From Nitrobacteraceae bacterium AZCC 1564 (lineage in GTDB: Bacteria > Pseudomonadota > Alphaproteobacteria > Rhizobiales > Xanthobacteraceae): a stretch of DNA of 64,000 nucleotides. The notes under the pieces are model-generated. The model was not told where the DNA came from. It did not search any database and worked only from the letters and a program-made list of their open reading frames with translations. The DNA is taken from positions 4,045,001 to 4,109,000 of the forward strand of contig JBAGRR010000001.1 of assembly GCA_036924835.1 (NCBI GenBank). The letters run 5' to 3'. How positions within the stretch are numbered: the first letter of the stretch is position 1; each line of letters begins with the position of its first letter. Positions 44,202 through 64,000 of this stretch are shown here, piece by piece. A program made the translations under genes and the position numbers.

Positions 44202-44210
44202 GGGAACCTC

Positions 44211-46661: not shown

Positions 46662-47521
46662 CAGATCGCCTGCCTTCCGAACAGGCCCGTCGGCCGCAGT
46701 GTGAGCACCAGAACCATCGGCAAAAATAAGATGACATAAGCGAGATCGGGAAACAGGGCCTGTCCGTAGCTGTAGATGAAGCCGATGATCAGGCTGCCGA
46801 CGAAAGCGCCGAGCAGGCTGCCGACGCCGCCGAGGATGACGACGACCAGTGCCAGCGGCAGCATGTCCGTATCGAGGCCTGGATAGACCGACAGAATAGG
46901 CCCGGCGAGAACGCCGCCGGCACCCGCGAGCGCAGAGCCGAGGCAGAACACCATGGAGAAGAGCACGGAGGTCCGGATTCCCATGGCGCGCGCCATGGTG
47001 AGATCGTCGACGCCCGCGCGGATCATTGCGCCCAGGCGGCTGCGCTCTAGCAGAAACCAAAGGGCGGCTGCCAGGGCGAAGGCGACGCCGATCACGAACA
47101 GACGATAGATCGGAAACGCCAGATGCGAGACGCGAAGCGCGCCGGTCAATTCGCTCGGCATCGGCACAGGACGCGGATCACCAGTCCATATCCAGACGCA
47201 GGTGTCCGCGATAATGAACGCGATGCCGAGCGTCACCAGAACTTGCGCGAGCGGCTGACCATTGAGCCTGCGAAGGATAAAGCGCTCTATAATGGCGCCG
47301 AGAATGCTGATGGCGGCGGCGCCGAGCAGGATCGCGATCCAGAAATTCACGCCAGCTTCGATCGCCGACAGCCCGACATAGGCGCCAAGCATGAAATAGG
47401 CACCGTGGGACAGATTGACGATGCGCATCAGGCCGAAAATCAGCGAAAAGCCTGATGCAAGAATGAACAGGAGGGACCCGAACGCCAGACCGTTCAAACC
47501 CTGAATGATCCAGAAGTTCAT
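46661..47521 (-). CDS. Branched-chain-type ABC transporter permease, LivH-like
   Basis: The 286-residue permease has the LivH pattern GLAFGSLLFILASGFSLIFGLMRIVNLSHGAYFMLGAYVG (residues 10-50) and LAGAGGVLAGPILSVYPGLDTDMLPLALVVVILGGVGSLLGAFVGSLIIG. It pairs with LivM to form the pore. It starts 21 bp after the binding-protein gene. Confidence 0.93.
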   Translation of the reverse strand: MNFWIIQGLNGLAFGSLLFILASGFSLIFGLMRIVNLSHGAYFMLGAYVGLSAIEAGVNFWIAILLGAAAISILGAIIERFILRRLNGQPLAQVLVTLGIAFIIADTCVWIWTGDPRPVPMPSELTGALRVSHLAFPIYRLFVIGVAFALAAALWFLLERSRLGAMIRAGVDDLTMARAMGIRTSVLFSMVFCLGSALAGAGGVLAGPILSVYPGLDTDMLPLALVVVILGGVGSLLGAFVGSLIIGFIYSYGQALFPDLAYVILFLPMVLVLTLRPTGLFGRQAI

Positions 47522-47542
47522 GCGGTCCCTCCCGACGATGCG

Positions 47543-48757
47543 TTACTTCGCCGGCGCCCAGTCGCGTGAGTAGACGGGACTCTTGAGAAATTCATCCGCG
47601 CCGTAGGTCCAGAACTGGCTCACGGACGGATAGGTCTTGATCACGACGTTCTGCAGTCGGCCGTCCTTCTTCTCGACCTTGCGGATCGCGATATCGAGGA
47701 TCGGTTGGCCGTAATTGTCGAGCTTCACAGGGCCGTAGGGGCTCTGAGGAATGTTGACGTTGCGCAAGGCCTTCATGAAGGCTTCCTTGTTCGAGATGTC
47801 GCCCTTCACCTGTTCCAGCGCATTGTTGAGGAACTGGCAGGCCATGTAAGCGCCGACGGTGTAGTAACCGGGGTCCGCGCCGTAAGCCTTGCGGACGGCT
47901 TCAACGAACTTCTTGTTGGCAGGTGTGTCGATGGCGGCGCTGTACCAGCCGGCCGAGACCACGCCGGCGGCTTCGTTGCCCATGCGCTTCAGGATGCCTT
48001 CATCCACGGTCGTCATGGCGCCGAGAACCGGCTTCTGCATCCCATAGTTCTTGTACTCGCTCAGGAACTTGATGCCGTTGCCACCGGCGAACGCCGCAAA
48101 AACAGCGTCGACGTTCGGATCGATCTGCGTGATGTAGGTGCCGTATTCCGCAGCATTGAGCGGCGACCACAATTTCTGGACGACCTTGCCGCCGTTCTGC
48201 TCGAACGTGCGCTGGAAACCGGCCGCGATTTCATGTCCGAACGCGAAGTCGTCAGCGATGATCGCGATCTTTTTGTAGTGCAGATCCTTGGCAGCGTATT
48301 CGCCAAGCGGATGGTGAGCCTGAGCGGATGTGCCGACGGCACGCACGAACCAGGGATTGGGTTTACGCTGGGTCAGATCTTCCGCGGCGGCGGAGGGCGA
48401 GATGATCGGCGTTTTGGTCTGGCGGATGTAGTCGTCGATTGCGAGTGCTTCGAAGGCAGCGAGCGGGCCGATCAAGACTTGTGCGCCGTCACGCTCGACC
48501 AGTTCCTGCGCCTTGGTTTTTGTCACCGCGGGCTGGCCGGCGGTGTCCGCGATGATGACGTCGATCTTTCGTCCGGCCATTTCGCCGTGATGCTCGTCCA
48601 TGCACAGCTTGAGTCCTTCCTCCATCTGTCGGCCACCGGCGGCCAGGGCCCCGGACCGGACGGTCATGAAGCCGACTTTGAGCGGCTCTGCCGCCTGTGC
48701 GGGCGCCAGAGCGAACGCCGCAAGAATCGTCGTCGATAGAAGGATGCGGAAACGCAT
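47543..48757 (-). CDS. ABC transporter periplasmic substrate-binding protein, LivK-like
   Basis: The 404-residue protein begins with a signal peptide (MRFRILLSTTILAAFALAPAQA) and is a type I periplasmic-binding protein: LKVGFMTVRSGALAAGGRQMEEGLKLC, VLIGPLAAFEALAIDDYIRQTKTPIISPSAAAEDL. It is the first gene of the seven- to nine-gene leftward operon. By context with a molybdenum hydroxylase its ligand may be an aromatic or heterocyclic acid, but this is inference. A divergent GntR gene starts 166 bp away. Confidence 0.9.
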   Translation of the reverse strand: MRFRILLSTTILAAFALAPAQAAEPLKVGFMTVRSGALAAGGRQMEEGLKLCMDEHHGEMAGRKIDVIIADTAGQPAVTKTKAQELVERDGAQVLIGPLAAFEALAIDDYIRQTKTPIISPSAAAEDLTQRKPNPWFVRAVGTSAQAHHPLGEYAAKDLHYKKIAIIADDFAFGHEIAAGFQRTFEQNGGKVVQKLWSPLNAAEYGTYITQIDPNVDAVFAAFAGGNGIKFLSEYKNYGMQKPVLGAMTTVDEGILKRMGNEAAGVVSAGWYSAAIDTPANKKFVEAVRKAYGADPGYYTVGAYMACQFLNNALEQVKGDISNKEAFMKALRNVNIPQSPYGPVKLDNYGQPILDIAIRKVEKKDGRLQNVVIKTYPSVSQFWTYGADEFLKSPVYSRDWAPAK

Positions 48758-52311: not shown

Positions 52312-53274
52312 CTAGTCGGGCACGACATAGTTACAGACGTAGGAAACGTCGCGGGCGGATAGCAAATTGTTGCAACTTGAGCAGACCGCGACTGGCGTAA
52401 CGACCTTACCCGAAGGATGGACGAAGTCGAAGTTGCTACGTCCGCCGCGGACGACCCATTTCTCCCCCCATACTTTCATGAGTATCATTGGCCCGTAGCT
52501 GTCCAGCCCCGTCTCAGTCAGGTTATAGCCGCCGAGTTCTTCGTTCTTTTCGATGAAGCCGGCTCGTTGCAGGTTGAGAAGTCGCCCGGACAACACGCTC
52601 GGAGCAATCAAAAGGGCATTGATGAAATCGTCGAAGCGGTGATTGCCGTGAAAGAGCTCCTGAAGAACAAGGAAGGTCCATCTGTCACCGACAATCGACA
52701 ACATCCGTTCCACTGAGCAAGGACGTCGACCCTGTACCGACCCGTCCCAGGTAGATCTCCTGTGCCGCTGGGCGGTCTTGGGACGTGGAATCCAGTAGTC
52801 CTTCGGAATGCGAATACGTATGTCGCGTGCTTGGACGGCCTCACCCGTCTCTCGCCAAACGACCCTAGCCGAAAACCAGGATCTACAAGTCTTGTGGAAC
52901 AGCGCGAGCGGAGGTGTGCCGTCGCACATCCACTTGTCCCCGAACCACATCATTCCAAGCGTTATGGGGTAAACGTCCCGTCCACGATCGGTAAGCCGAT
53001 ATTGTTTGTGCTGGCCCGGCTTGCCGATCCGCTTCAGGATTCCGTTCTTCTGTAGCCGTTCAAGTCTTTTGCTCAGGGTGGCGCGAGGAATAGCCAGTTT
53101 GCGTTGGAATTCAGCGAATCGGCATGCGCCGAAAAACGCCTCCCGAATGATCAAGTAAGTCCAAGTATCCGCAAGGATATCGATGGTCGCCGATTCCGCC
53201 GAATGTCTGACGTAACCCTGAGGAGGGTAACGGTCAGGACGCACACCCCCGTTGGGGCCGGGAGCGCCTTCCAT
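52312..53274 (-). CDS. Tandem HxlR-family regulator (two winged-helix domains)
   Basis: The 320-residue protein holds two HxlR domains. Domain 1 is about residues 25-115 (LADTWTYLIIREAFFGACRFAEFQRKLAIPRATLSKRLERLQKNGILKR). Domain 2 is about 185-275 (VGDRWTFLVLQELFHGNHRFDDFINALLIAPSVLSGRLLNLQRAGFIE), a repeat of the same fold. A C-terminal CSSCNNLLS could bind metal. HxlR proteins normally act as dimers of one domain, so this protein may form an internal pseudo-dimer. It is the last gene of the leftward operon, after the CoA ligase. The ATG at 53272-53274 is used. Confidence 0.8.
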   Translation of the reverse strand: MEGAPGPNGGVRPDRYPPQGYVRHSAESATIDILADTWTYLIIREAFFGACRFAEFQRKLAIPRATLSKRLERLQKNGILKRIGKPGQHKQYRLTDRGRDVYPITLGMMWFGDKWMCDGTPPLALFHKTCRSWFSARVVWRETGEAVQARDIRIRIPKDYWIPRPKTAQRHRRSTWDGSVQGRRPCSVERMLSIVGDRWTFLVLQELFHGNHRFDDFINALLIAPSVLSGRLLNLQRAGFIEKNEELGGYNLTETGLDSYGPMILMKVWGEKWVVRGGRSNFDFVHPSGKVVTPVAVCSSCNNLLSARDVSYVCNYVVPD

Positions 53275-53311: not shown

Positions 53312-54970
53312 TTAGCAGGCAATCGGATCGGGCCCCGTTGCCGAGCGCGCCAATTCGAGCTCAGCTTCTCGCATCTTGAAATACTGCACTTTGCCGCTGG
53401 CTGTCGTCGGAAATGCGTCAACAAGTCGGATATATCGCGGAATCTTGAACGTCGCGATCCTGCCTTTACATCTCTCTCTCAGTTGCTCGGCTGTCATATT
53501 CGCGCCGGGCTTCAATTTGATCCAAGAACAAACTTCCTCGCCGTACTTCAAGTCTGGAAGCCCGAATACATAGGCCTCGGCAATTTCGGACATTGTAAGG
53601 AGAAATTCTTCGATCTCGCGAGGATAGATGTTCTCTCCGCCGCGAATTATCGTGTTCTTGCTTCTTCCGACGATCTGTAGATAACCGTCGGAAGTCATCG
53701 CTGCTAAATCGCCCGAATGCATCCAGCCGTCCTTGTCGATGGCTTCGCTGGTGCTTTCCGGGTTCCGCCAATAGCCCTGCATAACCGAATAGCCCCTGAT
53801 GCAGAGTTCGCCACTGACACCGCGCTCGACCGTTTGGCCGGTCTTAGGGTCGATGATCTTGGCTTCGATGTGAGGGTGGACCGTTCCGACGGTGGTAACT
53901 CGCTGTTCATTGCTATCGTCGGGAAGCGTTTGGAAAGATATTGGAGACGTCTCCGTCATGCCGTAGGTCACCGTGACTTCGCGCATGTTCATGCGTTCGA
54001 CCGCTTGACGCATCGTTTCGATCGGGCAGGGCGCGCCACCCATGCAGCCAGTCCTGAGAGTAGAAAAATCGGCTTTGTGAACCGCTTCATGCGTGAGCAA
54101 CGAGATGTACATTGTCGGAACGCCGTAGAAAGACGTGCAGCGTTCGCGCCGGATCGCATCGAACGTCGTCTCCGGATCGAAGCTTTCCCCAGGCAGCACG
54201 ATTGCGCTGCCATGGGTCATTGCGGCAAGCGCCCCGAGAACGAGACCGAAGCAGTGAAAGAACGGAACAGGCAGGCATATGCGATCAGAGCTCGTCAGCT
54301 TTTGCCGCTCACCGACGAAATGTCCGTTGTTGAGGATATTTCGGTGCGTCAACAGCGCACCTTTCGGACGTCCGGTCGTCCCCGAGGTATACTGAAGACT
54401 GCAGGGATCGTCAGGAGAGACCGCGTCCTCGGCCGCCTCGAGCCGTCTTCTGTTTTGTGGCGAGCGGTTCAGGAATTCGAACCAGTTCGAGCCGGACTCG
54501 TCAAAATCGAAGTAGATGATTTCTTCGAGATCGGAAAGTTCGGAGCGAATGTTCTCGAGCGCGCCCACGAACGAATAGCCACGAAACGCACGCGCGGCAA
54601 AAACGAGCCTAGCCCCTGAATCGGCCAAAACGTGCCGTGCTTCTTCTTGCCTTAGAGCAGGGTTGACCGTCACAACGACTGCGCCAACGCGCACTGCCCC
54701 ATGATGCACGACCAGCCACTCGATCTTGTTCGCCGACCAGATCGCGATTCGATCTCCCTTCTGGACTCCTATCGCGAGCAGAGCTCCGGCCACCCGATCT
54801 GCATCGCGATCCAATTCCTTGTAGGTCAATCGTTGGCCCTGGAAGATGCTTACGACAGCATCGTTCGCACCGTATCGAGCGGCAGCATCGCGCAAGGCCC
54901 CTCCGATGGTAACCTCAAGAAGCGGGGACTCTGTGGCCCCTATGACATACGAAAGTTCGGCGCTCGCCAT
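53312..54970 (-). CDS. Acyl-CoA ligase (AMP-forming)
   Basis: The 552-residue ANL-family ligase has the ATP motif LQYTSGTTGRPKGALLTHRN (about 190-209), VTYGMTETSPI (near 335), GELCIRGYSVMQGYWRNPEST, DGWMHSGDLAAMTSDGYLQIVGRSKNTIIRGGENIYPREIEEFL and the C-terminal catalytic Lys in FPTTASGKVQYFKMREAELE. Such enzymes activate carboxylic acids via acyl-AMP to acyl-CoA. In this operon it probably activates an arylacetic or related acid for the DpgC-like enzyme. It is the fourth gene downstream of the thioesterase. Confidence 0.93.
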   Translation of the reverse strand: MASAELSYVIGATESPLLEVTIGGALRDAAARYGANDAVVSIFQGQRLTYKELDRDADRVAGALLAIGVQKGDRIAIWSANKIEWLVVHHGAVRVGAVVVTVNPALRQEEARHVLADSGARLVFAARAFRGYSFVGALENIRSELSDLEEIIYFDFDESGSNWFEFLNRSPQNRRRLEAAEDAVSPDDPCSLQYTSGTTGRPKGALLTHRNILNNGHFVGERQKLTSSDRICLPVPFFHCFGLVLGALAAMTHGSAIVLPGESFDPETTFDAIRRERCTSFYGVPTMYISLLTHEAVHKADFSTLRTGCMGGAPCPIETMRQAVERMNMREVTVTYGMTETSPISFQTLPDDSNEQRVTTVGTVHPHIEAKIIDPKTGQTVERGVSGELCIRGYSVMQGYWRNPESTSEAIDKDGWMHSGDLAAMTSDGYLQIVGRSKNTIIRGGENIYPREIEEFLLTMSEIAEAYVFGLPDLKYGEEVCSWIKLKPGANMTAEQLRERCKGRIATFKIPRYIRLVDAFPTTASGKVQYFKMREAELELARSATGPDPIAC

Positions 54971-55002: not shown

Positions 55003-56496
55003 CTATGATCTTGCTCCCAGCAGGAAATTATCCAACGCATCCCCCTCGGGGTCTGCGTTCGCAGCGGCGCGGGCGCCGCGTACGGCGGTCGTCGCTGATT
55101 TCACCTGGCGTATTGCGGGATCTACAAGCTTGTCGAAGATCAGATCGAAGCTGCGTACGCCCCGTCGATACGTGCCGCTGTATCCTTTCACGAGGTCTGC
55201 GCATTCGGCGACCTCGATACCGAAGGCGTAGTCCAATAGGGCGGCATCCTTGACTGCCGTCAACCAGCGTGTTGTGAGCGCCTCCTCCTGCGCGAACCGC
55301 CAGGAACGACGACGAAGCACTCGGGCGCGCGCAAGCAGCCGCATTAGCAAAAAGCCGGATATGGTGTCGCTTCTTACGTGAAGTCCGACGTGGAAACGAT
55401 GCTCGAGTCCGCGCTTTCTGAGCCAACCGAGAAACGCATCGCTGACCTTGGGGGGGAGCAGCGCGCAAATCTCTTCAGGACCAGGCTTGAGATATTCGAC
55501 GATCCGCAGACCTTCGCCCGCCTTCACGCGTGTTTCACGGCGCACAATCGCAAACCGATCCGCGCGAGTCTTCAGATCGGCGACCCTGATGACGTCCTCG
55601 TACGTCATGCGGAGCGCTAGAAGCCGCGCTGCTTCCAGCGTGAGCTTCCAACCCTGATCGGCTCCGCGGACCTCACGGTCCGTCGAAAGCACATCGCGCA
55701 CCCGCCGCAGATATAGATCAGCGTAGGCCTTGTCCTGATAATCGAGGCATCGCCTGTACCCGGTTCCGACGACATGTCGTGTTTCCACGGGAAATTCGGC
55801 GTCGACAAGCTGAGATGCAGTCGCTGCTGACGCGGCCGGCGCCGGAGAGGCGGGAAGAGTTCCTCTCGCGGCTTCGAAGCCATAGCGATATCCCTTGAGG
55901 CTTGCCGCAACCGATTTTCCGGATTTCTTGATGGCGGCTTCGAACAGCTCGGGGGCGATGCCGAGGGCGTTCGAGCCCGCGAGGGTGCCGAGGATCACCG
56001 CGTTGATGACTGTTCCGGCTTCGAGCGCTGCGCTCTGCATGTCAAACACGAGAGGTCGCTTGGCGGCCGCATGGATCGCGTTCAACGCCGCCTGGGAGTC
56101 GAACCGTCCGTCGAGCATAGAAATTTTTTCGGTCGTCGCATAAACTCGGTGATTGGATGCGATCAGAGTCGTCCTGTCGGGCGAGATATAGCCTCCCTCT
56201 GCTGCCCGAGCTGCTTCGAGTAGCTCGGACGCCATCATTACATCCACACGCCCCGGAATGGGGGTAAGAGCGAAGACAGGACGGGCTTGCCCAAGTTCTT
56301 CCTTTGGGACCGGCAGGTACTCGATGTAGTAAGTTGTTGCACCTGTGCGCTGAGCGACACCCGGAATCGACGTTCCCTGGACGAGGAAGCCCGCGCTGCG
56401 AATGGCTTCGATGGTCCAGTCCGATAGAACGCCACCTCCTTCACCGCCGAGAGCAGCAATCAAGATGGAGCGCGTCTTGGAAGATCCCATGGTCAT
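55003..56496 (-). CDS. 2-oxoacid:acceptor oxidoreductase beta-like subunit (indolepyruvate oxidoreductase type)
   Basis: The 497-residue protein has the gamma-type domain of IorB at its N terminus (SILIAALGGEGGGVLSDWTIEAIRSAGFLVQGTSIPGVAQRTGATTYYIEYLP, about 8-61, with the nucleotide-like loop). About 300 residues of helical extension follow, with DFKT and RLLALRMTYEDVIRVADLKTRADRF. The classic IorB is about 190 residues, so the extension is a feature of a larger subgroup found in alphaproteobacteria. The start ATG 56494-56496 overlaps the alpha-subunit stop. Together they would oxidatively decarboxylate an aryl 2-oxoacid to an acyl-CoA. Confidence 0.85.
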   Translation of the reverse strand: MTMGSSKTRSILIAALGGEGGGVLSDWTIEAIRSAGFLVQGTSIPGVAQRTGATTYYIEYLPVPKEELGQARPVFALTPIPGRVDVMMASELLEAARAAEGGYISPDRTTLIASNHRVYATTEKISMLDGRFDSQAALNAIHAAAKRPLVFDMQSAALEAGTVINAVILGTLAGSNALGIAPELFEAAIKKSGKSVAASLKGYRYGFEAARGTLPASPAPAASAATASQLVDAEFPVETRHVVGTGYRRCLDYQDKAYADLYLRRVRDVLSTDREVRGADQGWKLTLEAARLLALRMTYEDVIRVADLKTRADRFAIVRRETRVKAGEGLRIVEYLKPGPEEICALLPPKVSDAFLGWLRKRGLEHRFHVGLHVRSDTISGFLLMRLLARARVLRRRSWRFAQEEALTTRWLTAVKDAALLDYAFGIEVAECADLVKGYSGTYRRGVRSFDLIFDKLVDPAIRQVKSATTAVRGARAAANADPEGDALDNFLLGARS

Positions 56497-58634
56497 GCTA
56501 CGACCCTTTGACGTTGCTGCATGTAGCGGATGAATGTGCTGCGGATGCGCTCCGCGGTACGATCGAGGAACGTCGGGTTTTGGATCACTTCCGCGCGGTA
56601 GAACGACGGACAAAGGACCGCGGCATGCGCTACTTCACCGCAATTGCCGCAACCGACGCACCCGTCGTTGACATAGGCAACGGGACTTTTTCGCAGTGGA
56701 TCCGAGTTGCTTTTTACGGTGAGCGTCGGACAGCCCGAAAGACGAACGCAAGAGTGATCACCGGTGCAAGTCGTCTCGTCCACTCCGTACTTGGTCCGGA
56801 TGACGCGCTTTCCTTCCTTGACACGGGCCGCCGTCGCGGGTTTCTCCCTCCGCTGGCGAGCCAACATGCATTCGCCTTCTGCGATGATGACCCGAAGCCC
56901 TTTCCCTTGGGCGAGAATGGCCCGTTTGAGAGCCGTGATCATCCGGCCAATGCGGTACGAACCGACCGTCTCGATCCAAGTGACGCCCACACCGCGCAAC
57001 GCCTTCTCGATATCCATATCGCTGACTTGGTTGCGGGAGTTCGAGCCGGTAGACGGGATGTGCTGATGGCCAGTCGCCGAGGCGTAACCGTTCTTGAGCA
57101 GAACGAGTACACCCTCATCCTTGTTGAAGACGTGGTTGGCGACGCCTGTCGTGAGACCCTGGTGCCAAAAGCCGCCGTCTCCCATGATACTGACAACCGG
57201 TCTCTTCATCATCGACGAGAGCCCGACGGATGACGCTAAGCCTAAGCCATACCCAAGGATCGTATTACCTATCTTGAACGGTTCCAGAGTCGCGAAGCTG
57301 TGGCACCCGATGTCTGCGCTGACGTGCACTTTCCCCACCTGCTCCTGAACAAGTTTGAGTGCGCTGAAGACCGGACGTTCAGGACAGCCGGTGCATAGTC
57401 CGGGAGGACGACCAGGCAGCGGTCCTCCGAGCAACTCTGCGGCTCTGCGCTTGTTATCCTGAAACGATTTCACCGCGAGCGCGGCCTCTTTGGTGTCGAG
57501 ACGGGCCGGGCGGGCGCGCACCAAGAATTTGTCGAATCCATCGATTAGAACCGCGCCGACGTATTCGCCTGCCATTGGCAGGCAATTCTTTCCATGGATC
57601 TTCGTTGCGATGCCGGCATCGGACAGGAGGGCTTTGATATCGTTCTCTATGTAATTGGGCTGACCTTCCTCGATGACGAGGATCGCCTTCTTGTCCCGAC
57701 AGAAGTTCTCGATCTCGTCCGGGACGAGCGGATAGACGCAATTGAGGACAAGCAGAGGTATGCGCGAGTTGCCAAAGTCATCCGCAAGGCCGATAGCCCG
57801 TAAGGCGGAGATGACGTGATTGTACATGCCGCCCTGCATCACGAAGCCGACGTCGTCGAACTCGCCTGGAAAGATCTCGTTGATCTTTCGCTCCCTGACG
57901 AAATCGACCGCTGCGGGGTACCGGACCTCGATCTTGAGCTTTTCCTGAACGTATGTCGCCGGAGGTAGGCTGATCCGATTCTTGTCGAAAACGGGAGATT
58001 CGATCACGCTTCGCTTCGACATCGGCGCGCGCCGGTTCTCGTTCGCCTCGAACCTGCCGCTCAAATGGCAAGCCCGAATGCGGAGCTCCATCATCACCGG
58101 AGTATTAGAGGCCTCCGAAAGCTCGAATGAACGCTCGACGATGTCAACGACCTTCTGCAGGTCCGGACGCGGATCCATGAGCCAGATCTGCGACTTTGTC
58201 GCGATCGCATGGCTGCGCTCTTGGATAATACTGGATCCTTCACCGTAGTCCTCACCGACGACGATCAGCGATCCGCCAACGACGCCCGCCGAAGCCAGAT
58301 TTGAGATCGCATCGGCAGCGACGTTCGTCCCCACGATCGACTTGAAAGTCACGGCGCCGCGAATGGGATAGTTGATGGAGGCGCTTAGCATCGCTGCCGC
58401 GCCAGCCTCATTCGCGCATGTCTCGAGATGGATGCCCAGCTCCTCCAGCAAGTCGTGCGCGTCGCTCAACACGTCCACGAGCGCGGATACTGGGGCTCCT
58501 TGATATCCGCCGACGTAGGATACCCCCGATTGAAGCAGAGCCTTGGTCACGGCGAGGATGCCTTCGCCCTCGAAGACCTCACCCTTGCCGACACGAAGCT
58601 GCTGTACTTCCTCGTGAAAAGAACGCTCCGGCAT
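56493..58634 (-). CDS. 2-oxoacid:acceptor oxidoreductase alpha-like subunit (IorA type)
   Basis: The 713-residue subunit combines a pyruvate:ferredoxin-type alpha part (1-330), a TPP-binding part with SIMGDGGFWHQGLTTGVANHVFNKDEGVLVLLKNGYASATG (about 480-520), and a C-terminal ferredoxin-like tail with CTGDHSCVRLSGCP and NDGCVGCGNCGEVAHAAVLCP (two [4Fe-4S] sets). The family, typified by indolepyruvate:ferredoxin oxidoreductase, makes arylacetyl- or aroyl-CoA, CO2 and reduced ferredoxin. Neighbours indicate an aromatic 2-oxoacid as substrate. It lies 12 bp after the thioesterase stop. Confidence 0.9.
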   Translation of the reverse strand: MPERSFHEEVQQLRVGKGEVFEGEGILAVTKALLQSGVSYVGGYQGAPVSALVDVLSDAHDLLEELGIHLETCANEAGAAAMLSASINYPIRGAVTFKSIVGTNVAADAISNLASAGVVGGSLIVVGEDYGEGSSIIQERSHAIATKSQIWLMDPRPDLQKVVDIVERSFELSEASNTPVMMELRIRACHLSGRFEANENRRAPMSKRSVIESPVFDKNRISLPPATYVQEKLKIEVRYPAAVDFVRERKINEIFPGEFDDVGFVMQGGMYNHVISALRAIGLADDFGNSRIPLLVLNCVYPLVPDEIENFCRDKKAILVIEEGQPNYIENDIKALLSDAGIATKIHGKNCLPMAGEYVGAVLIDGFDKFLVRARPARLDTKEAALAVKSFQDNKRRAAELLGGPLPGRPPGLCTGCPERPVFSALKLVQEQVGKVHVSADIGCHSFATLEPFKIGNTILGYGLGLASSVGLSSMMKRPVVSIMGDGGFWHQGLTTGVANHVFNKDEGVLVLLKNGYASATGHQHIPSTGSNSRNQVSDMDIEKALRGVGVTWIETVGSYRIGRMITALKRAILAQGKGLRVIIAEGECMLARQRREKPATAARVKEGKRVIRTKYGVDETTCTGDHSCVRLSGCPTLTVKSNSDPLRKSPVAYVNDGCVGCGNCGEVAHAAVLCPSFYRAEVIQNPTFLDRTAERIRSTFIRYMQQRQRVVA

Positions 58635-58646
58635 GTTACCTCCTAT

Positions 58647-59024
58647 TTATAGCTGGCCGATTCTGGCTTTGAGGTCCGCTACGGAAACGATCGTCCGGAC
58701 GTGGCTGGCGTTTGCGATTGCGCGGCCATCACAGGTGACCGACGCGGAGAACGTAATCCTGCGCTTATTCGTTTCCGCCACGGTCACGACGACGTCGGCG
58801 CTCCGGCCGAGCTTCGCAGCCCCCACATGCTCGAGAGTGACCTGGGATCCGACGCTGTCCATCCCGTCGTCGATCATGGTCAGGAGCAGATCGCGACACG
58901 CGAATTCGATATCGGCGAGGATGCTCGGAGTCGCATAGACGCGAAGTTCCGGCCCCATAAACGAAATTGCCCTTGCTTCGTCGATCTCGATCGTTCGACT
59001 GAGTTCTTTGCCAACTTCAACCAT
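58647..59024 (-). CDS. Hotdog-fold thioesterase (fluoroacetyl-CoA-thioesterase-like)
   Basis: The 125-residue single hotdog domain matches the FlK-like group: PELRVYATPSILADIEFACRDLLLTMIDDGMDSVGSQVTLEHVGAAKLGRSADVVVTVAE (about 25-85), with candidate catalytic residues in the helix LADIEFACRDLL (Glu) and in LEHVGAAK (His). It would hydrolyse an acyl- or aroyl-CoA. RBS GGAGGT is six bases before the ATG. It is the first gene of the leftward operon, and its promoter region carries the GAACTAAAT motif. Confidence 0.85.
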   Translation of the reverse strand: MVEVGKELSRTIEIDEARAISFMGPELRVYATPSILADIEFACRDLLLTMIDDGMDSVGSQVTLEHVGAAKLGRSADVVVTVAETNKRRITFSASVTCDGRAIANASHVRTIVSVADLKARIGQL

Positions 59025-59055
59025 TGAAGTACCTCCAAAGGCCTCCGTTTACACC

Positions 59056-59070
59056 ATTTAGTTCAGATAT
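59056..59070 (-). promoter_or_regulatory. GAACTAAAT motif upstream of the thioesterase operon
   Basis: Plus strand ATTTAGTTCAGATAT, with GGAAGT following; read toward the thioesterase gene it is ATATCTGAACTAAAT, 31 bp before the ATG. One of four related sites in this region. Confidence 0.5.
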
Positions 59071-59305
59071 GGAAGTCACATCGCGCGGAATGCTATTGTA
59101 CGGTGTTCTTTTGCGACGAAAAGAACGAGGCGGCCGAAAAATCGAGCGGAATGATTTTCTGTGGTCGGTTGTCGGCCTGATGCGATCTGTGATGGAGTGC
59201 AGTAGATTTCGACGGAAATTATAGCATATCGCGCACTCACGCTGCCTGATGTGTCCTTGCTGATAGCTGTGTCTGGGGCAGCTTTGCCGCCCACGTGTTT
59301 GCTTT

Positions 59306-59321
59306 TATAGTTGAACTAAAT
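59306..59321 (+). promoter_or_regulatory. GAACTAAAT motif, second copy
   Basis: TATAGTTGAACTAAAT on the plus strand, containing the 11-bp dyad TAGTTGAACTA. It faces right into 59322-59659, where no intact gene follows. Confidence 0.45.
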
Positions 59322-59428
59322 GCGTTGGGTGGTCTCAGGTTTGAAAAATGCGCAATCGTCGCGACTGAACCTTGCCTCTGTCGATTGGGGGGGCAGTCGA
59401 CCTCCGGTGTGAGAAGGTGGCCGGCGAT

Positions 59429-59632
59429 TCAAAAAGAAGCGCCCCCAAAGAGGAGGTGTCTGGCCGCGCCTCCGATACCATCGAGGACTCGCGCCAGATG
59501 TGCTGCGGTCATCGCGCGTTCCCGCGAATCCATGGCCTCTGCATTCTCTCGTATCTGCGAGGTGGCTCATTTGGCTGAGGCAGAGTGACGCGGCGCGCTA
59601 CGATCGCTCGGCTGTTTGCTGATCTCGATCAT
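59429..59632 (-). pseudogene. Possible decayed small ORF in the divergent region
   Basis: A leftward frame from the ATG at 59630-59632 reads MIEISKQPSDRSAPRHSASAK, a TGA, then ATSQIRENAEAMDSRERAMT and AAHLARVLDGIGGAARHLLF to a stop at 59429. Its start lies 28 bp after the motif at 59660, the same layout as for the thioesterase. The family is not recognised and it may be chance. The rest of 59025-59966 shows no gene. Confidence 0.2.
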
Positions 59633-59659
59633 CGTTGCGTCCGGACCTGCAACGACGTC

Positions 59660-59675
59660 ATTTAGTTCAGATATG
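59660..59675 (-). promoter_or_regulatory. GAACTAAAT motif, third copy
   Basis: ATTTAGTTCAGATATGGGAGT is nearly identical to 59056-59076. The distance to the fourth site (251 bp) equals that between the first and second (250 bp). Confidence 0.45.
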
Positions 59676-59910
59676 GGAGTAATAGAGTAAATGGGTGCGG
59701 GATTTGCCCCTATTTTCAATGATGAAAGGCCGCGAATAGCGTCATTTATCCCTGCCGTATCCTTCGGTTGGTGCGCAGTATCTGTCCGAGGTTTGGCGCT
59801 TGGGGCATCAAAAAATCCCGCTAGATTAAGGCATTTCTGGCTGACTCTTGCTCAGAGTGCTCATCCTTTTGCCGCGTCTGCCTCGGTTCAGGCGGCTAAA
59901 AAGAGACTTT

Positions 59911-59926
59911 TATAGTTGAACTAAAT
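59911..59926 (+). promoter_or_regulatory. GAACTAAAT motif upstream of the DpgC-like gene
   Basis: TATAGTTGAACTAAAT, identical to 59306-59321 and preceded by CTTT. It lies 40 bp before the ATG of the DpgC-like gene, the mirror image of the arrangement at the thioesterase. Confidence 0.5.
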
Positions 59927-59966
59927 ATGTTATGGCTTCGTTCAGGTTAGACAAAGGAGAAGAGAG

Positions 59967-61343
59967 ATGGTTGCGACGAAATCGGCGCCGACGCCGCTTG
60001 CTCAAACGTCAGGTCGCGCTGGATGGCCGGATATCTCGGGGGACTACGCGGCCGACACCAGGGCATTCGCGCAATACTGGCGGGAAGGGCTGGCGAAGCT
60101 TGATGGCCTTCCAGCGCGTCGCGATCGCAGCGAGGAGCAGAAGATGGCCGCAATTGCCGTCATCGATGATGCGCGAAAGTCTCGGTCTCGCTTTCTGTCC
60201 GCCCATGCGGTTCGCCTCTATCGTGAGCTGACAAACGATCTGGGGCGCTTCAGGCGGGTGGAAGATCTTGCATATGCGGTTGCCGAGGCCGTACCGGGCC
60301 TATGTCCCACCAAGGAGCGCGTGGCGAGCGAGTCGACCTTAGTGCAGGCGGACAAGGACGGTCATGAGGTCGACCAGGGGCTGTTCTTCAACGCCGTGCT
60401 TGCCGATCGCGAATGCGGACTCCATCTCTGCCATGCGATGTTGCTGCCGCGGAAAGAGGCGGTGGATCGGCTCGATCAGCTCAAGAAGGAGGGGCGGGTC
60501 AATCTGGAGCATGCCGCGGTCGAGCGACAGGGCAAGGCCTCCTTCGTGTATCTGAAGAACTCCCGCTATCTCAATGCGGAGGATGATACGACCGTCGCCG
60601 ACGTCGAAACGGCGGTCGACCTGGCGCTTCTCGACCCCGAGACCTCCGTTTGCGTTCTCCGCGGTGGAAAGATCGAAGCCGGTAAGCATGCCGGACAGCA
60701 CGTTTTCTGCACGGGCATCAATCTCACGCACATCTATTACGGTCGCCTGTCGTACCTCTGGTACCTTATTCGCGACCTGGGCTTCATCAACAAGTTCTAC
60801 CGCGGCCTGGCGCTGCCGGACGTTCCGCCGGACGAGATGGTCGGCGATTCGATCGAGAAGCCATGGATCGCGGCGATCGACAAGTTCGCGATCGGAGGTG
60901 GCTGTCAGTACATTCTCTCGACCGACTACAACATCGCCGGCAAAGACGCGTACATGACGCTGCCAGCCCGGAAGGAAGGCATCATCCCCGGCATCGCGAA
61001 CATGCGGATGCCACGTTTTGTGGGAGATCGGGCCACGCGGCAAGCGATCATGGCGGACATGCGCATCGATTGCGATAGTCCCACGGGACGACAGATCTGT
61101 GACTTGCTCGTCGAGCCCGAAGCGATGGATGCGGCAATTCAGGACACGATCGATCGCTTAACGAACTCGGGCGTCGTTAGCGCATCCGGTAATCGGAGAG
61201 CCATGCGTATCACGGCAGAGCCGCTCGATATGTTCAGAACATACATGTCGGTCTATGCGCGTGAGCAGGCCTACTGCCATTTCTCGCCAGCGCTGATCAA
61301 CAATCTTGAGCGGTTCTGGAACGCTCAAAGCCGAAAAATCTGA
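59967..61343 (+). CDS. DpgC-like cofactor-independent dioxygenase (enoyl-CoA hydratase superfamily)
   Basis: The 458-residue protein is far longer than crotonases. It has an N-terminal helical part of about 190 residues and a crotonase core (about 195-400) with LNAEDDTTVADVETAVDLALLDPETSVCVLRGG, HVFCTGINLTHI (first oxyanion segment), EKPWIAAIDKFAIGGGCQYILSTDYNIAGKDAYMTLPARKEGIIPGIANMRMPRF (second oxyanion segment). From memory this layout and wording match DpgC, (3,5-dihydroxyphenyl)acetyl-CoA 1,2-dioxygenase, which adds O2 without metal or flavin and releases CoA and an arylglyoxylate. No alignment was run. AAAGGAG precedes the ATG; a hairpin follows the gene. Confidence 0.85.
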   Translation: MVATKSAPTPLAQTSGRAGWPDISGDYAADTRAFAQYWREGLAKLDGLPARRDRSEEQKMAAIAVIDDARKSRSRFLSAHAVRLYRELTNDLGRFRRVEDLAYAVAEAVPGLCPTKERVASESTLVQADKDGHEVDQGLFFNAVLADRECGLHLCHAMLLPRKEAVDRLDQLKKEGRVNLEHAAVERQGKASFVYLKNSRYLNAEDDTTVADVETAVDLALLDPETSVCVLRGGKIEAGKHAGQHVFCTGINLTHIYYGRLSYLWYLIRDLGFINKFYRGLALPDVPPDEMVGDSIEKPWIAAIDKFAIGGGCQYILSTDYNIAGKDAYMTLPARKEGIIPGIANMRMPRFVGDRATRQAIMADMRIDCDSPTGRQICDLLVEPEAMDAAIQDTIDRLTNSGVVSASGNRRAMRITAEPLDMFRTYMSVYAREQAYCHFSPALINNLERFWNAQSRKI

Positions 61344-61350
61344 CTGATCC

Positions 61351-61377
61351 GCGGCGCGCCCGGAGAAGGTGCGCCGC
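61351..61377 (+). terminator. Hairpin after the DpgC-like gene (possible partial terminator)
   Basis: A 7-bp GC stem GCGGCGC/GCGCCGC around a 13-nt loop, then TCTTTCAATT. The ABC binding-protein gene starts 24 bp later, so it may attenuate rather than stop transcription. Confidence 0.5.
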
Positions 61378-61401
61378 TCTTTCAATTATAGGGAGCCAGG
61401 G

Positions 61402-62568
61402 ATGAGCAATATTTGGAAATCACTTCGCTTGACGTTTTCGACGGCGGCGACGGCATTATTGATGGCGCAAGCAAGCTACGCCCAGCAGCCGATCAAGATC
61501 GGAGCGATTCTTTCCGTGACCGGTCCAGCTTCGTTTCTCGGTGAGCCGCAGAAGCGGACAATCGAGATGCTCGCGCAGCAGGTGAATGCGGAGGGTGGTA
61601 TCGCGGGCCGGAAGATCGAACTGGTCGTCTACGACGACGGAGGCGATGCCAACGCTGCCCGGACATTCGCGAGCCGCTTGATCGATCAGGACAAGGTCAT
61701 CGCAATGGTCGGCGGATCGACGACCGGCACGACCATGGCCATGCTGCCCGCCTTCGAGGAGGCGGAGATCCCGTTCATGTCTATGGCTGGCGCGCTGCAA
61801 GTAGTCCAGCCCGTCAAGAAGTGGGTCTTCAAGACGCCGCAGACCGATACGATGGCCTGCGGGAAGATCTTCGAGGACATCAAGGCGCGAGGTCTTTCGA
61901 GTATCGCCGTCGTCTTCGGAACGGATGGGTTCGGGCGGTCGATGCGCGACCAGTGCGTCGCCGTCGCTCCGAAATACGGCATCAACATCGTGCATGAGGA
62001 GAGCTTCGGACCCAAGGATTCCGACATGACTCCTCAGCTCACGAATGTGAGAGGCAAGAAGGACGTGCAGGCGATCGTCGTTCCCGGTATCGGACAGACC
62101 CCCGCGATACTGGCCCGCAACTACAAGCAGCTCGGTATGACGCTGCCGCTGTACGTCAGCCACGGTGTCGCCTCCAAAGAGTTCATCGATCTGTCCGCGG
62201 GAGGCGCGGAAGGTGCGCGATTGCCTGTTCCGGCGCTTCTGGTCGGGTCCAAGCTGGCGACCGAGGATTCCCAGCGGGCTCCGGTTTTGGCCTACACGCA
62301 GGCCTACGAGAAGACAGCAAATCAGCCAGTGTCGGCGTTCGGTGGCTTCATGCATGACGGCTTCCAAATGGTAGTCGAGGCGATCAAGCGGTCGGGATCG
62401 ACGGAGCCGGCCAAGATTCGTGATGCGCTGGAGGCCACGAAGGGCTTCGTGGGCGTCAACGGCATCTATTCGATGACCGCGAAGGACCACATGGGTCTCG
62501 ACCTCGCGGGATTCCGAATGGTGGAGATCAAGAACGGCAACTGGTCGCCTATCGCTTCCGGGAAGTAA
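61402..62568 (+). CDS. ABC transporter substrate-binding protein, Liv-type
   Basis: The 388-residue protein has a signal peptide (residues 1-27, ending ASYAQ) and the type I binding fold: IKIGAILSVTGPASFLGEPQKRTIEMLAQQVNAEGGIAGRKIELVVYDDGGDANAARTF, VGGSTTGTTMAMLPAFEEAEIPFMSMAGA and GFMHDGFQMVVEAIKRSG. The usual GPxS/T ligand-binding segment suggests an acid or amide ligand. Placed after the DpgC-like gene, its ligand is probably an aromatic acid. The ATG at 61402 with GGGAG upstream is chosen over 61369. Confidence 0.92.
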   Translation: MSNIWKSLRLTFSTAATALLMAQASYAQQPIKIGAILSVTGPASFLGEPQKRTIEMLAQQVNAEGGIAGRKIELVVYDDGGDANAARTFASRLIDQDKVIAMVGGSTTGTTMAMLPAFEEAEIPFMSMAGALQVVQPVKKWVFKTPQTDTMACGKIFEDIKARGLSSIAVVFGTDGFGRSMRDQCVAVAPKYGINIVHEESFGPKDSDMTPQLTNVRGKKDVQAIVVPGIGQTPAILARNYKQLGMTLPLYVSHGVASKEFIDLSAGGAEGARLPVPALLVGSKLATEDSQRAPVLAYTQAYEKTANQPVSAFGGFMHDGFQMVVEAIKRSGSTEPAKIRDALEATKGFVGVNGIYSMTAKDHMGLDLAGFRMVEIKNGNWSPIASGK

Positions 62569-62597
62569 CGGGCAGAGCTCCTAGCCGCTCCTATAGA

Positions 62598-63485
62598 ATG
62601 GGTATTGGCATGGCCGCTGATCTACTACAGTACGCTTCCTCCGGCGTTACGATTGGTGCAGTCTACGCTCTCGTCGCGTTGGGTTTCACGCTGATCTACA
62701 ACTCGACGCACGTAGCCAACTTCGCGCAGGGCGACTTCGCGATGTTGGGGGCCATGACGACCGTTTTCGTCGTGACCGGCGGCTTGCCGACATTCCCCGC
62801 TGCGATACTCGGCACCGGGGTCGCAGCGGTGGCCGGTCTGGCGCTGTACCGGCTCGCTATCGATCCGGCACGCAGCAGTCCCGTCCTTGGATTGATCGTT
62901 CTCACAATCGGTGCATCGATCTTCGCAAAAGGGGTCGCGCAGCTCGTCTTCGACAAGAGGTTTCATTCGTTGCCTTCTTGGTTCGACGCGGGTCCGATAA
63001 AACTCCTCGGAGCCACGATTCAGACGCAGAGCTTGGTGGTTCTTGCGGGAACGATCGTCGTCGTTGGAGCGCTCGCGGCGTTCACGACGAAGACGCTACT
63101 GGGCAAGGGAATCCTTGCAGTCTCGCAGAATCCCCTGGCGGCGACCCTGATGGGAATGAACGTGCGCTCGATCGTCACGCTGGCTTTCGTGGTCTCGGCC
63201 GCGATCGGCGGTTTGGCGGGCATCATGGCTGCTCCCATCACCCTCACCAGCTACGACGCTGGCACCATTCTATCGCTCAAGGGATTTGCCGCCGCGATGT
63301 TGGGCGGCATGGGAAATCCAGTTGGAGCGGTCGTTGGGGGCATCGTCCTCGGGATCGTTGAGGCGTTCGGTGGTGGCCTGATCTCATCAGCCTACAAGGA
63401 TGCATTCGCCTTTCTGGTCATTCTGATCGTGTTGGCAGTGAGGCCGCAGGGCTTCTTCGGCTCGATTGCAAGGGAAAGAGTCTGA
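62598..63485 (+). CDS. ABC transporter permease, LivH-like
   Basis: The 295-residue permease has the family N terminus GVTIGAVYALVALGFTLIYNSTHVANFAQGDFAMLGAM (residues 16-53) and the cytoplasmic loop/pore region IGGLAGIMAAPITLTSYDAGTILSLKGFAAAMLGGMGNPVGAVVGGIVLG (near 200-250). It is 29 bp after the binding-protein gene and just before LivM. ATP-binding genes of this set would be beyond the window. Confidence 0.93.
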   Translation: MGIGMAADLLQYASSGVTIGAVYALVALGFTLIYNSTHVANFAQGDFAMLGAMTTVFVVTGGLPTFPAAILGTGVAAVAGLALYRLAIDPARSSPVLGLIVLTIGASIFAKGVAQLVFDKRFHSLPSWFDAGPIKLLGATIQTQSLVVLAGTIVVVGALAAFTTKTLLGKGILAVSQNPLAATLMGMNVRSIVTLAFVVSAAIGGLAGIMAAPITLTSYDAGTILSLKGFAAAMLGGMGNPVGAVVGGIVLGIVEAFGGGLISSAYKDAFAFLVILIVLAVRPQGFFGSIARERV

Positions 63486-63486
63486 C

Positions 63487-64000
63487 ATGCGCTCGGTACG
63501 CTCACGATTACTGCAATTGGCGATCCTGGTTGCGATCATCGCCATAGCTCCGCTCTTGGTGCCCTCCAACTACTACCTGCGCGTCATGACCCTGATATAC
63601 GTCTTCGGCTTGGCAGCCGTCGGGCTGAATCTGCTCATGGGCTTTGCCGGACAAGTCAGCCTGGGGCACGCCGGTTTCGTCGGCATCGGGGCGTATTCGG
63701 TCGCACTGGGCTCGGTGCACTGGGGGCTACCAGGATTATATTCGGTTGTGCTCGGTGCCTTTGTGTCGGCCGCGATCGCCGCCCTGGTCGGTCGTCCAAT
63801 TCTCCGGCTGAAGGGACATTACCTGGCGGTAGCGACGTTGGGATTCGGCTTCCTGATCGCTCTGCTGATCACAAACGAAGCAGGTCTGACCGGGGGCCCG
63901 GACGGAATCAGCGTACCTCGACCAGTCGTATTCGGATGGCGCCTCCGGACGGTCGAGCAGTGGTACTGGATTTCGGGCGTGGCCCTCGTCGTGGGCGTGT
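63487..64000 (+). CDS. ABC transporter permease, LivM-like, cut by window edge
   Basis: The 171 residues present start at the ATG 63487-63489, one base after the LivH stop. They contain the LivM core AAVGLNLLMGFAGQVSLGHAGFVGIGAYSVAL (about 42-73), GRPILRLKGHYLAVATLGFGFLIALLITNEAGLTGGPDGISVPRP (about 103-147), typical of the family. The gene continues past the end. Confidence 0.93.
   Translation, partial: MRSVRSRLLQLAILVAIIAIAPLLVPSNYYLRVMTLIYVFGLAAVGLNLLMGFAGQVSLGHAGFVGIGAYSVALGSVHWGLPGLYSVVLGAFVSAAIAALVGRPILRLKGHYLAVATLGFGFLIALLITNEAGLTGGPDGISVPRPVVFGWRLRTVEQWYWISGVALVVGV

What the first reader, a model, noticed from the sequence alone, without database searches (positions are those of the whole stretch)
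59025..63485. Candidate O2-dependent arylacetyl-CoA pathway: DpgC-like dioxygenase plus 2-oxoacid oxidoreductase
A DpgC-like enzyme (59967), an IorAB-like pair (58634-55003), a CoA ligase (54970), a thioesterase (59024) and a Liv transporter are divergent with shared motifs. Known DpgC makes an arylglyoxylate from an arylacetyl-CoA using O2. IorAB-type enzymes turn aryl 2-oxoacids into acyl-CoA. Ligase, DpgC, IorAB and thioesterase would thus convert an arylacetate to an aroyl-CoA and then aroate, an aerobic counterpart of the anaerobic phenylacetate to phenylglyoxylate to benzoyl-CoA route. DpgC is best known from glycopeptide antibiotic synthesis, so a catabolic setting would be unusual. The function is inference; no substrate is shown.
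Basis: partly seen in the sequence, partly recalled or inferred. Interest (0 to 1): 0.85.

Follow-up and report, generated by a model that had tools for sequence, protein, structure and literature searches.

The report
Oxygen-using arylacetate-to-aromatic-acid gene cluster
A soil-type bacterium carries a gene cluster that most likely shortens aromatic acetic acids by one carbon, using an oxygen-consuming enzyme so far known from antibiotic manufacture where known anaerobic bacteria use an oxygen-free one; the enzymes have not been assayed.

Summary
A DpgC-family enzyme (59967-61343) is divergent from a FlK-type thioesterase, an IorA/IorB 2-oxoacid oxidoreductase pair and a CoA ligase, and is followed by a Liv-type transporter. 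Four exact copies of an operator-like 15-mer, the only ones in the 6-Mb genome, lie between the arms. The DpgC catalytic positions I could place are kept. IorAB lies beside DpgC in 11 of the 80 relatives fetched and beside two more distant DpgCs, in alpha- and betaproteobacteria, in different gene orders. PadBCD-family genes (the anaerobic arylacetyl-CoA to arylglyoxylate enzyme) sit in four DpgC operons, three with IorAB in view. One beta locus has DpgC-IorAB within 10 kb of a box (aerobic benzoyl-CoA) cluster; another DpgC has pobA 194 bp away. The window's genome lacks PaaA/PaaC but has pobA. Most likely route: arylacetate > arylacetyl-CoA > (O2, DpgC) arylglyoxylate > (IorAB) aroyl-CoA > aroate, perhaps from 4-hydroxyphenylacetate. 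Chemistry and substrate are inferred; 69 of the 80 loci show no IorAB. Two corrections: DpgC relatives are common in this bacterial family, and the neighbouring 'HpaB' is a 4-hydroxybutyryl-CoA dehydratase relative.

The parts
52312..53274 (-). Tandem HxlR-type regulator (two HxlR domains in one chain), probable regulator of the cluster
   Evidence: Pfam HxlR, 2 stretches; start chosen at ATG 53274; a homologue stands beside the ligase in L020, L022, L024
53312..54970 (-). AMP-binding acyl/aryl-CoA ligase, proposed arylacetate-CoA ligase
   Evidence: Pfam AMP-binding 357 bits; nearest NCBIfam PRK12583 697 bits, below its cut-off of 832; nearest PDB chains are fatty-acyl-CoA synthase 8weu and feruloyl-CoA synthetase 8wev; homologue near DpgC in 13 of 80 loci (cluster 20)
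55003..56496 (-). IorB-type subunit fused to DUF6537
   Evidence: PRK08312 535 bits, over cut-off 348; POR and DUF6537 domains
56493..58634 (-). IorA-type ThDP subunit with C-terminal Fe-S domain; proposed arylglyoxylate oxidoreductase (aroyl-CoA forming)
   Evidence: TIGR03336 297 bits, below cut-off 651; GDG...N ThDP motif at 485-515 and Cys 623, 629, 635, 659, 662, 665, 675 invariant in the 13 aligned sequences
58647..59024 (-). FlK-type hotdog thioesterase, proposed aroyl-CoA thioesterase
   Evidence: Pfam FlK 76 bits, cut-off 27; T32, E40, H66 invariant in the 10 aligned sequences, the spacing of the FlK triad T42/E50/H76 (recalled)
59056..59070 (+). Operator-like site ATTTAGTTCAGATAT
59307..59321 (-). 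Operator-like site ATTTAGTTCAACTAT
59660..59674 (+). Operator-like site ATTTAGTTCAGATAT
59912..59926 (-). Operator-like site ATTTAGTTCAACTAT, 40 bases before dpgC
59967..61343 (+). DpgC-family cofactor-free dioxygenase, proposed arylacetyl-CoA 1,2-dioxygenase
   Evidence: PDB DpgC E 2e-90, 179 of 421 aligned residues identical; residues matching DpgC E189, I235, R254, G296, Q299, A319, I324 kept; model matches DpgC entries
61369..62568 (+). Liv/HAAT-type substrate-binding protein
   Evidence: Peripla_BP_6; nearest PDB chains 3sg0 and 4dqd
62598..63485 (+). LivH-type permease
63466..63999 (+). LivM-type permease, cut by the window end; LivG and LivF follow in L010

Best explanation
The cluster encodes an O2-dependent one-carbon shortening of an arylacetate. 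The Liv transporter imports the acid (inferred). The ligase makes arylacetyl-CoA (inferred). The DpgC-like enzyme, which needs no cofactor, adds O2 at the alpha carbon and releases CoA, giving the arylglyoxylate (inferred from the kept catalytic residues and the known DpgC reaction). IorAB, a ThDP/Fe-S 2-oxoacid oxidoreductase, decarboxylates the arylglyoxylate and forms aroyl-CoA, passing two electrons to a ferredoxin or other acceptor (inferred). The FlK-type thioesterase releases the aroate (inferred), which enters ring cleavage. In the window's organism 4-hydroxyphenylacetate to 4-hydroxybenzoate, then PobA, is the best fit; in a relative with box genes it is phenylacetate to benzoyl-CoA. 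A tandem HxlR regulator acting at the four operator-like sites probably controls both arms (inferred). In some relatives a PadBCD-family enzyme may do the DpgC step without O2.
For: Shown directly or by tool: DpgC fold and active-site residues kept (R254, A319 and V425 are named in PDB titles, the roles of the others are recalled). IorA and IorB in the fetched stretch around DpgC in 11 of 80 loci, the stretch being cut by a contig end on the relevant side in 3 more (L019, L068, L086); also around a DpgC only 42% identical in L153 and L154. In 296 genomes of the window's family 5 of 59 DpgC genomes, the window's included, have IorA within 15 kb; about 0.18 expected, P about 4e-5 for 4 or more without the window (places matched and IorA places counted by eye; two of the four, G516 and G485, appear to be the genomes of L020 and L024). 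Linked IorAs lie in separate parts of the IorA tree: 3 changes, at least 2 forced by starred branches. PadBCD-family genes in the operons of L020, L029, L154 and L068. No PadI over cut-off in 12 of 12 genomes, 11 of them with IorAB beside DpgC in view. Thioesterases of two families, FlK or 4HBT_2, in these operons. BoxA, BoxB, BoxC, BoxR-like, aldehyde dehydrogenase and benzoate-CoA ligase, all over their cut-offs, within 10 kb of DpgC in L056, which also has IorAB; BoxB and BoxC beside PaaK-DpgC-FlK in L060; PobA 194 bp from DpgC, beside PaaK, in L095 and about 16 kb from DpgC on the same contig in the L029 genome. Window genome: no PaaA/PaaC match, PobA 700 bits over cut-off 539.
Against: No activity, substrate or expression data. 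IorA misses the IOR_alpha cut-off (297 of 651) and DpgC the equivalog cut-off (404 of 530), so both may have shifted substrates. 69 of the 80 DpgC loci show no IorAB in the fetched stretch (3 of them cut on that side, others on short contigs). PaaK is near DpgC in 16 of 80, 15 of them without IorAB in view. L023 and L157, close relatives of the window's DpgC, have the ligase but no IorAB in reach. IorAB of this family is more often without DpgC: of 38 of 300 genomes of another order with an IorA hit, I fetched 14, chosen by high IorA identity, and 0 of 14 showed DpgC or PadB-like genes. Box genes in 2 of 80 loci and PobA in 1 of 80 are few: one copy per 4.5-Mb genome would give up to about 0.4 loci by chance for each (my arithmetic). 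In L056, with box genes, a thioesterase would work against benzoyl-CoA use. PobA is over cut-off in 13 of 15 genomes tested, but no matched baseline was run, and the Xanthobacter tagetidis genome (G003) and G011 have none. The PadBCD-family proteins are only 27-28% identical to the PadB that stands beside a true PadI.
Confidence: 0.66

Rival explanations
1. IorAB works upstream: it turns arylpyruvates into arylacetyl-CoA, as known IORs do. The ligase is a second entry for arylacetate, DpgC then makes the arylglyoxylate, and an unlinked enzyme (for example a benzoylformate decarboxylase) takes it on.
For: Known IorAB activity is arylpyruvate to arylacetyl-CoA (passages of PMC9765128 and PMC5109826). 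A related IorAB without DpgC sits with a ThDP enzyme that has some likeness to benzoylformate decarboxylase (L159).
Against: Among the neighbour families shared by three or more IorAB-DpgC loci that I identified (ligase, thioesterase, Liv or TRAP transporters) there is no aminotransferase or decarboxylase; not every neighbour was scanned. PadBCD-family and box genes in the same clusters fit a route that ends at aroyl-CoA. D. multivorans makes IorA3B3 at lower level also on phenylacetate, called possibly gratuitous by its authors (PMC5109826, passages).
Confidence: 0.14
2. Same chemistry but another arylacetate in the window's organism: indole-3-acetate or a heteroarylacetate such as thiophene-2-acetate, giving the (hetero)aryl carboxylate.
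For: The substrate is not fixed by any test here. Xanthobacter tagetidis, whose genome carries the cluster (L024) but no PobA hit (G003), is recalled to grow on thiophene-2-acetate and thiophene-2-carboxylate; that is memory, not a call. IOR-type enzymes accept indolepyruvate (recalled).
Against: Linked downstream genes found so far are for benzoyl-CoA and 4-hydroxybenzoate. PobA is present in the window's genome.
Confidence: 0.1
3. The DpgC homologue is not an oxygenase here but a hydrolase or hydratase of the crotonase superfamily, and the cluster serves another acyl-CoA route.
For: It misses the DpgC equivalog cut-off; some sources name relatives 'thioesterase DpgC' or enoyl-CoA hydratase.
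Against: The catalytic positions placed, including R254 and A319, are kept, and V425 is replaced only by Leu; the part before the crotonase core aligns with DpgC too (query 23-451).
Confidence: 0.06

Closest known systems
DpgC, 3,5-dihydroxyphenylacetyl-CoA 1,2-dioxygenase of glycopeptide antibiotic clusters
   Same: Fold, length, N-terminal region, active-site residues; proposed reaction type
   Different: About 40-43% identical; below the curated cut-off (404 against 530); set in a transport-ligase-oxidoreductase cluster, none of the 30 neighbouring proteins scanned being a DpgA or HpgT type; product would feed IorAB, not an aminotransferase
Anaerobic Pad pathway (PadJ, PadBCD, PadEFGHI) of Thauera and Aromatoleum
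   Same: Same sequence of intermediates: arylacetyl-CoA, arylglyoxylate, aroyl-CoA (definition from PMC5109826 passages); some relatives carry PadBCD-family genes in the operon
   Different: First oxidation would use O2 and DpgC; the second step would use IorAB instead of PadEFGHI; no PadI over cut-off in 12 of 12 genomes tested (the window's genome not among them)
Indolepyruvate:ferredoxin oxidoreductase IorAB
   Same: ThDP subunit with Fe-S domain plus a POR-type subunit; IorB over the PRK08312 cut-off
   Different: IorA below the IOR_alpha cut-off; IorB carries DUF6537; proposed substrate one carbon shorter (arylglyoxylate)
Aerobic phenylacetate (Paa) epoxidase pathway
   Same: Aerobic use of arylacetate as CoA ester
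   Different: No ring epoxidation: the side chain is shortened instead; no PaaA/PaaC match in the window's genome, over cut-off in 3 of 15 genomes tested, one of them marginal

Membership tests
DpgC (NF042432 equivalog) | Curated score cut-off of 530 bits | tested here: not met
   404 bits: a DpgC-family relative, not filed as the 3,5-dihydroxy enzyme
DpgC-type dioxygenase superfamily | Crotonase core with the DpgC N-terminal part | tested here: met
   Alignment over 23-451; Foldseek TM 0.93 by target length, 0.85 by query length
DpgC-type dioxygenase superfamily | Active-site residues E189, I235, R254, G296, Q299, A319, I324, V425 (roles recalled; R254, A319, V425 named in PDB titles) | tested here: met
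   E205, I251, R269, G311, Q314, A334, I339 kept; V425 is L443
DpgC-type dioxygenase superfamily | O2-dependent 2-oxoacid formation from an arylacetyl-CoA | not testable with these tools
   Needs assay
Dpg biosynthesis operon | DpgA, DpgB, DpgD, HpgT beside DpgC (definition from PMC3849588 passages) | tested here: not met
   No polyketide synthase, further crotonase or aminotransferase among the 30 proteins scanned around the gene; not searched genome-wide
Indolepyruvate:ferredoxin oxidoreductase IorAB | IorA over TIGR03336 cut-off 651 | tested here: not met
   297 bits
Indolepyruvate oxidoreductase beta family (PRK08312) | Over cut-off 348 | tested here: met
   535 bits
ThDP/Fe-S 2-oxoacid oxidoreductase | ThDP GDG...N motif and Fe-S cysteines | tested here: met
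   Invariant in 13 aligned sequences, seven cysteines in the C-terminal domain; model too weak (pLDDT 64) for fine detail
FlK thioesterase | FlK domain over cut-off and Thr/Glu/His triad (recalled) | tested here: met
   76 against 27 bits; T32, E40, H66 in 10 of 10
Pad pathway | PadBCD in the window's genome | tested here: not met
   Best hit of the L020 PadB-like protein E 1.7e-6 over 67 residues
Pad pathway | PadEFGHI phenylglyoxylate dehydrogenase in genomes with the cluster | tested here: not met
   PadI over cut-off in 0 of 12; several are drafts; PadEFGH not searched; G000, G403 and G571 not tested

The most novel reading that the evidence does not exclude
A modular arylacetate route in Proteobacteria in which one ligase and one IorAB are shared, while the arylacetyl-CoA to arylglyoxylate step is done either by a cofactor-free, O2-consuming DpgC or by a PadBCD-family molybdenum enzyme, several genomes keeping both so that the same substrate can be used with and without O2; IorAB would then be the missing arylglyoxylate dehydrogenase of organisms without PadEFGHI.
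Probability: 0.45. Interest if true: 0.85.

Novelty: new variant of a known kind. Interest (0 to 1): 0.72.

Why it matters
[quoted passage not shown] If the reading is right, soil and water bacteria of several proteobacterial groups degrade arylacetates by a further aerobic route that leaves the ring intact until the side chain is gone. It would give a function to part of a large family (7,883 proteins at E <= 1e-20 among the 8,000 candidates scored), suggest how aerobes without PaaABCDE use arylacetates, and offer a candidate for the step phenylglyoxylate to benzoyl-CoA in organisms without PadEFGHI (called unclear for Desulfococcus multivorans in PMC5109826, passages). Ten paper searches listed no paper on such a route in the open-access library; most subscription papers are not in it.

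Tried and rejected
HpaB as an aromatic hydroxylase of the pathway: the gene after the Liv operon (L010:7954-9483) hits Pfam HpaB, but its nearest solved relatives are vinylacetyl-CoA isomerase and a GABA-metabolism dehydratase/isomerase (E 9e-203 and 9e-151, against 7e-30 for HpaB), so I dropped the idea that the substrate is first ring-hydroxylated here. The operator-like site before it has 2 mismatches and at that level is no better than background genome-wide, though it has a TGAACTAAA core.

PadBCD name taken at face value: JGI names the L020 protein phenylacetyl-CoA:acceptor oxidoreductase, but the PadB beside a true PadI is only 27-28% identical, so I write PadBCD-family.

Substrate from the binding protein: the nearest solved proteins, 3sg0 and 4dqd, are recalled as Rhodopseudomonas proteins with benzoylformate and phenylpyruvate as ligands; no paper on them could be read, so this is not used as evidence.

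IorA structure model: pLDDT 64; its hits only say ThDP enzyme and, lower, 2-oxoacid oxidoreductase; no PDB chain was found by sequence. DpgC on plasmids: 15 records, all below 60% identity, and no IorAB was found in the Tistrella stretch. Ring-pocket specificity from sequence was not attempted beyond the residue list.

First gene calling gave false frames in GC-rich loci and was redone.

Full report
OBSERVATION. The window is G000:C1:4045001-4109000 of a one-contig, 5,994,409-base genome whose nearest listed DpgC homologue is a Bradyrhizobium japonicum protein at 91%. On the minus strand, reading away from the intergenic region: FlK thioesterase (58647-59024), IorA (56493-58634), IorB fused to DUF6537 (55003-56496), CoA ligase (53312-54970) and a tandem HxlR regulator (about 52312-53274). 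On the plus strand: DpgC-like (59967-61343), a Liv-type binding protein and permeases, with the two ATPases after the window end. The 942-base intergenic region has four exact copies of ATTTAGTTCARMTAT, two in each direction, and none elsewhere in the genome. Related L156 keeps a TTTAGTTCA site, and L020 has a changed but again inverted pair; L022 and L024 show no such 9-mer within one mismatch.

THE DpgC-LIKE PROTEIN. It scores 404 bits against the DpgC equivalog model (cut-off 530), E 2e-90 to PDB 2np9, and its model (mean pLDDT 79) finds 19 DpgC chains ahead of other crotonases. DpgC positions E189, I235, R254, G296, Q299, A319 and I324 are kept, V425 is Leu. The numbering and roles are recalled, but R254, A319 and V425 are named in the PDB titles. 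Positions of E189, R254, G296, Q299 and I324 are the same in 22 of 22 aligned relatives, I235 in 19 of 22 with Val in 3.

RELATIVES. A scan of genome contigs gave 240 relatives, of which the best 80 were returned. IorA and IorB lie within the fetched stretch in 11 of 80: L020, L022, L024 (alphaproteobacteria) and L029, L045, L054, L056, L062, L064, L065, L082 (betaproteobacteria by label). L019, L068 and L086 are cut by contig ends on that side. Gene order differs: divergent arms in the alphas; IorA-IorB-(TRAP transporter, thioesterase)-ligase-DpgC or DpgC-TRAP-IorA-IorB-ligase in the betas. Two genomes of the window's own family with a DpgC only 42% identical (L153, L154) again have ligase-like, FlK, Liv genes and IorAB around it; they were picked because both genes fell on one contig. 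In the family sample 59 of 296 genomes have DpgC and 112 of 296 IorA; they lie within 15 kb of each other in 5 of 59, about 0.18 expected (broken drafts lower the observed number, kinship raises it, and G516 and G485 appear to be the genomes of L020 and L024). Within the window's genus as listed, G000 and G516 have DpgC and the 20 listed others do not. The rest of the 80 loci have other neighbours: PaaK in 16 of 80 (cluster 18; L021 PaaK 710 bits over cut-off 646; the L095 one 577, below it), and a large Reyranella group with an acyl-CoA dehydrogenase and a two-component system whose role I cannot read.

IorAB WITHOUT DpgC. IorA of this family is found in 38 of 300 genomes of the order of G004. 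I fetched 14 of these, the ones with high identity, and 8 loci from the window's family picked for high IorA identity; 0 of these 22 show DpgC or a PadB-like gene in the fetched stretch. The IorAB family is thus broader than this pathway.

TREES. IorAs linked to DpgC occupy separate places among 40 IorAs: 3 changes, at least 2 forced. DpgCs with IorAB need 6 changes among 87, but three of the rows counted as not linked are contig-cut (L019, L068, L086) and L156 is identical to L019, so the true number is lower. The link has therefore formed or been kept in more than one lineage.

WHAT THE NEIGHBOURS SAY ABOUT THE CHEMISTRY. (a) PadBCD-family genes stand in the operon in L020, L029 and L154, with IorAB, and in L068, where that side is cut off. 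The Pad pathway runs phenylacetyl-CoA, phenylglyoxylate, benzoyl-CoA by PadBCD and PadEFGHI (PMC5109826, passages; also PMC9765128, passages, and PMC2755013, passages). The proteins of L020, L029 and L068 are 27-28% identical to the PadB that stands beside a PadI of 832 bits in L110, with the PadC parts of L020 and L029 40-42%, and the L020 protein carries the JGI name phenylacetyl-CoA:acceptor oxidoreductase. (b) PadI is over its cut-off in 0 of 12 genomes, 11 of them with IorAB beside DpgC in view, so IorAB is the only candidate I see for the next step there; PadEFGH were not searched. (c) L056 has IorA, IorB, TRAP, 4HBT-like thioesterase, ligase, DpgC and then, after a crotonase, BoxA, BoxB, BoxC, a BoxR-like regulator, 3,4-dehydroadipyl-CoA semialdehyde dehydrogenase and a benzoate-CoA ligase family protein, each of these six over its cut-off. 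L060 has BoxB, BoxC and a BoxR-like regulator beside PaaK, DpgC and FlK, but no IorAB in the stretch. (d) PobA (644 bits, cut-off 539) ends 194 bp from DpgC, convergent, in L095, a PaaK locus without IorAB in view, and lies about 16 kb from DpgC in the L029 genome, with a type III secretion ATPase gene beyond it. These are few cases (box 2 of 80, pobA 1 of 80 loci). (e) Where FlK is missing, L045 and L056 have a 4HBT-type thioesterase (Pfam for L045; by likeness for L056); L054, L064 and L065 show neither at the threshold used. FlK is within reach in 14 of 86 DpgC loci.

THE WINDOW'S ORGANISM. No PaaA/PaaC family match in the genome, one PobA of 700 bits over cut-off, no PadB. Of 15 genomes tested (G000, the 12, G403 and G571), PaaA/PaaC is over cut-off in 3 (G004, G011 and a marginal G571) and PobA in 13; G003 (Xanthobacter tagetidis) and G011 have no PobA match. 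PobA is over cut-off in 1 of the 14 control genomes, which is no matched baseline. Several betas show weak PaaA-family hits in frames of BoxB length, which I read as BoxB from the L056 example; this was not checked in each.

MECHANISM. Ligase, then DpgC with O2, then IorAB, then thioesterase, as in Best explanation; every catalytic step is inferred. A hydroxylation by an HpaB-type enzyme is set aside: the gene in question is a relative of vinylacetyl-CoA isomerase / 4-hydroxybutyryl-CoA dehydratase. The main surviving rival is IorAB acting before DpgC, as known IorABs do on arylpyruvates. It is less likely because no arylpyruvate-making gene was seen among the shared neighbours, whereas acid uptake, ligase, thioesterase and, in some, PadBCD-family and box genes were.

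LITERATURE. DpgC is described in what was read as part of Dpg biosynthesis (PMC3849588, passages) and as a peroxidation without charged residues acting as base (PMC10138960, passages). The hit PMC10470551 uses DPGC for another enzyme (passages). Ten searches of the open-access library showed no DpgC-IorAB or catabolic DpgC paper in their listings, judged by titles and abstract starts; subscription journals are mostly not held.

VERDICT. Observation confirmed; the pathway idea is supported by context, unproven in chemistry; substrate most likely a phenyl-type arylacetate. New variant of a known kind.

Noticed in passing
window 52312-53274 and L010:9688-10743: Two regulators of about 320-350 aa, each with two HxlR domains in one chain, flank the cluster on both sides.
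   Followed up: partly
L010:7954-9483 (just after the window's Liv operon): A vinylacetyl-CoA isomerase / 4-hydroxybutyryl-CoA dehydratase relative (E 9e-203 to 6vjr) with a TGAACTAAA core like the cluster's operator upstream; its link to the pathway is unexplained.
   Followed up: partly
L139, L142, L151, L152: IorAB of the same family without DpgC stands near gentisate 1,2-dioxygenase in four genomes of the order of G004 (family model on L139; the others by likeness); L139 and L141 have two IorA genes in a row.
   Followed up: no
L159-L161, L163-L166: A different conserved IorAB cluster in the window's family with a TRAP transporter and 4HBT-like thioesterase; in L159 also a thiolase, short-chain dehydrogenase, ligase and a ThDP enzyme.
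   Followed up: no
Reyranella-type loci, e.g. L027, L047: The largest DpgC clade in the sample (38 of 87 tree rows) sits with an acyl-CoA dehydrogenase, a response regulator and a kinase, and I saw no partner for a 2-oxoacid.
   Followed up: no
L028: A MAG labelled Chloroflexi carries a DpgC inside the Reyranella clade; probably a misbinned contig.
   Followed up: no
G367:C1:1039830-1041893: An IorA homologue with one TGA inside its frame in an otherwise complete-looking genome; not looked into.
   Followed up: no
window 42544-48757: A second Liv-type transporter operon with a CO-dehydrogenase-type FAD subunit and a hydrolase lies upstream, next to a GntR regulator and an amidohydrolase.
   Followed up: no
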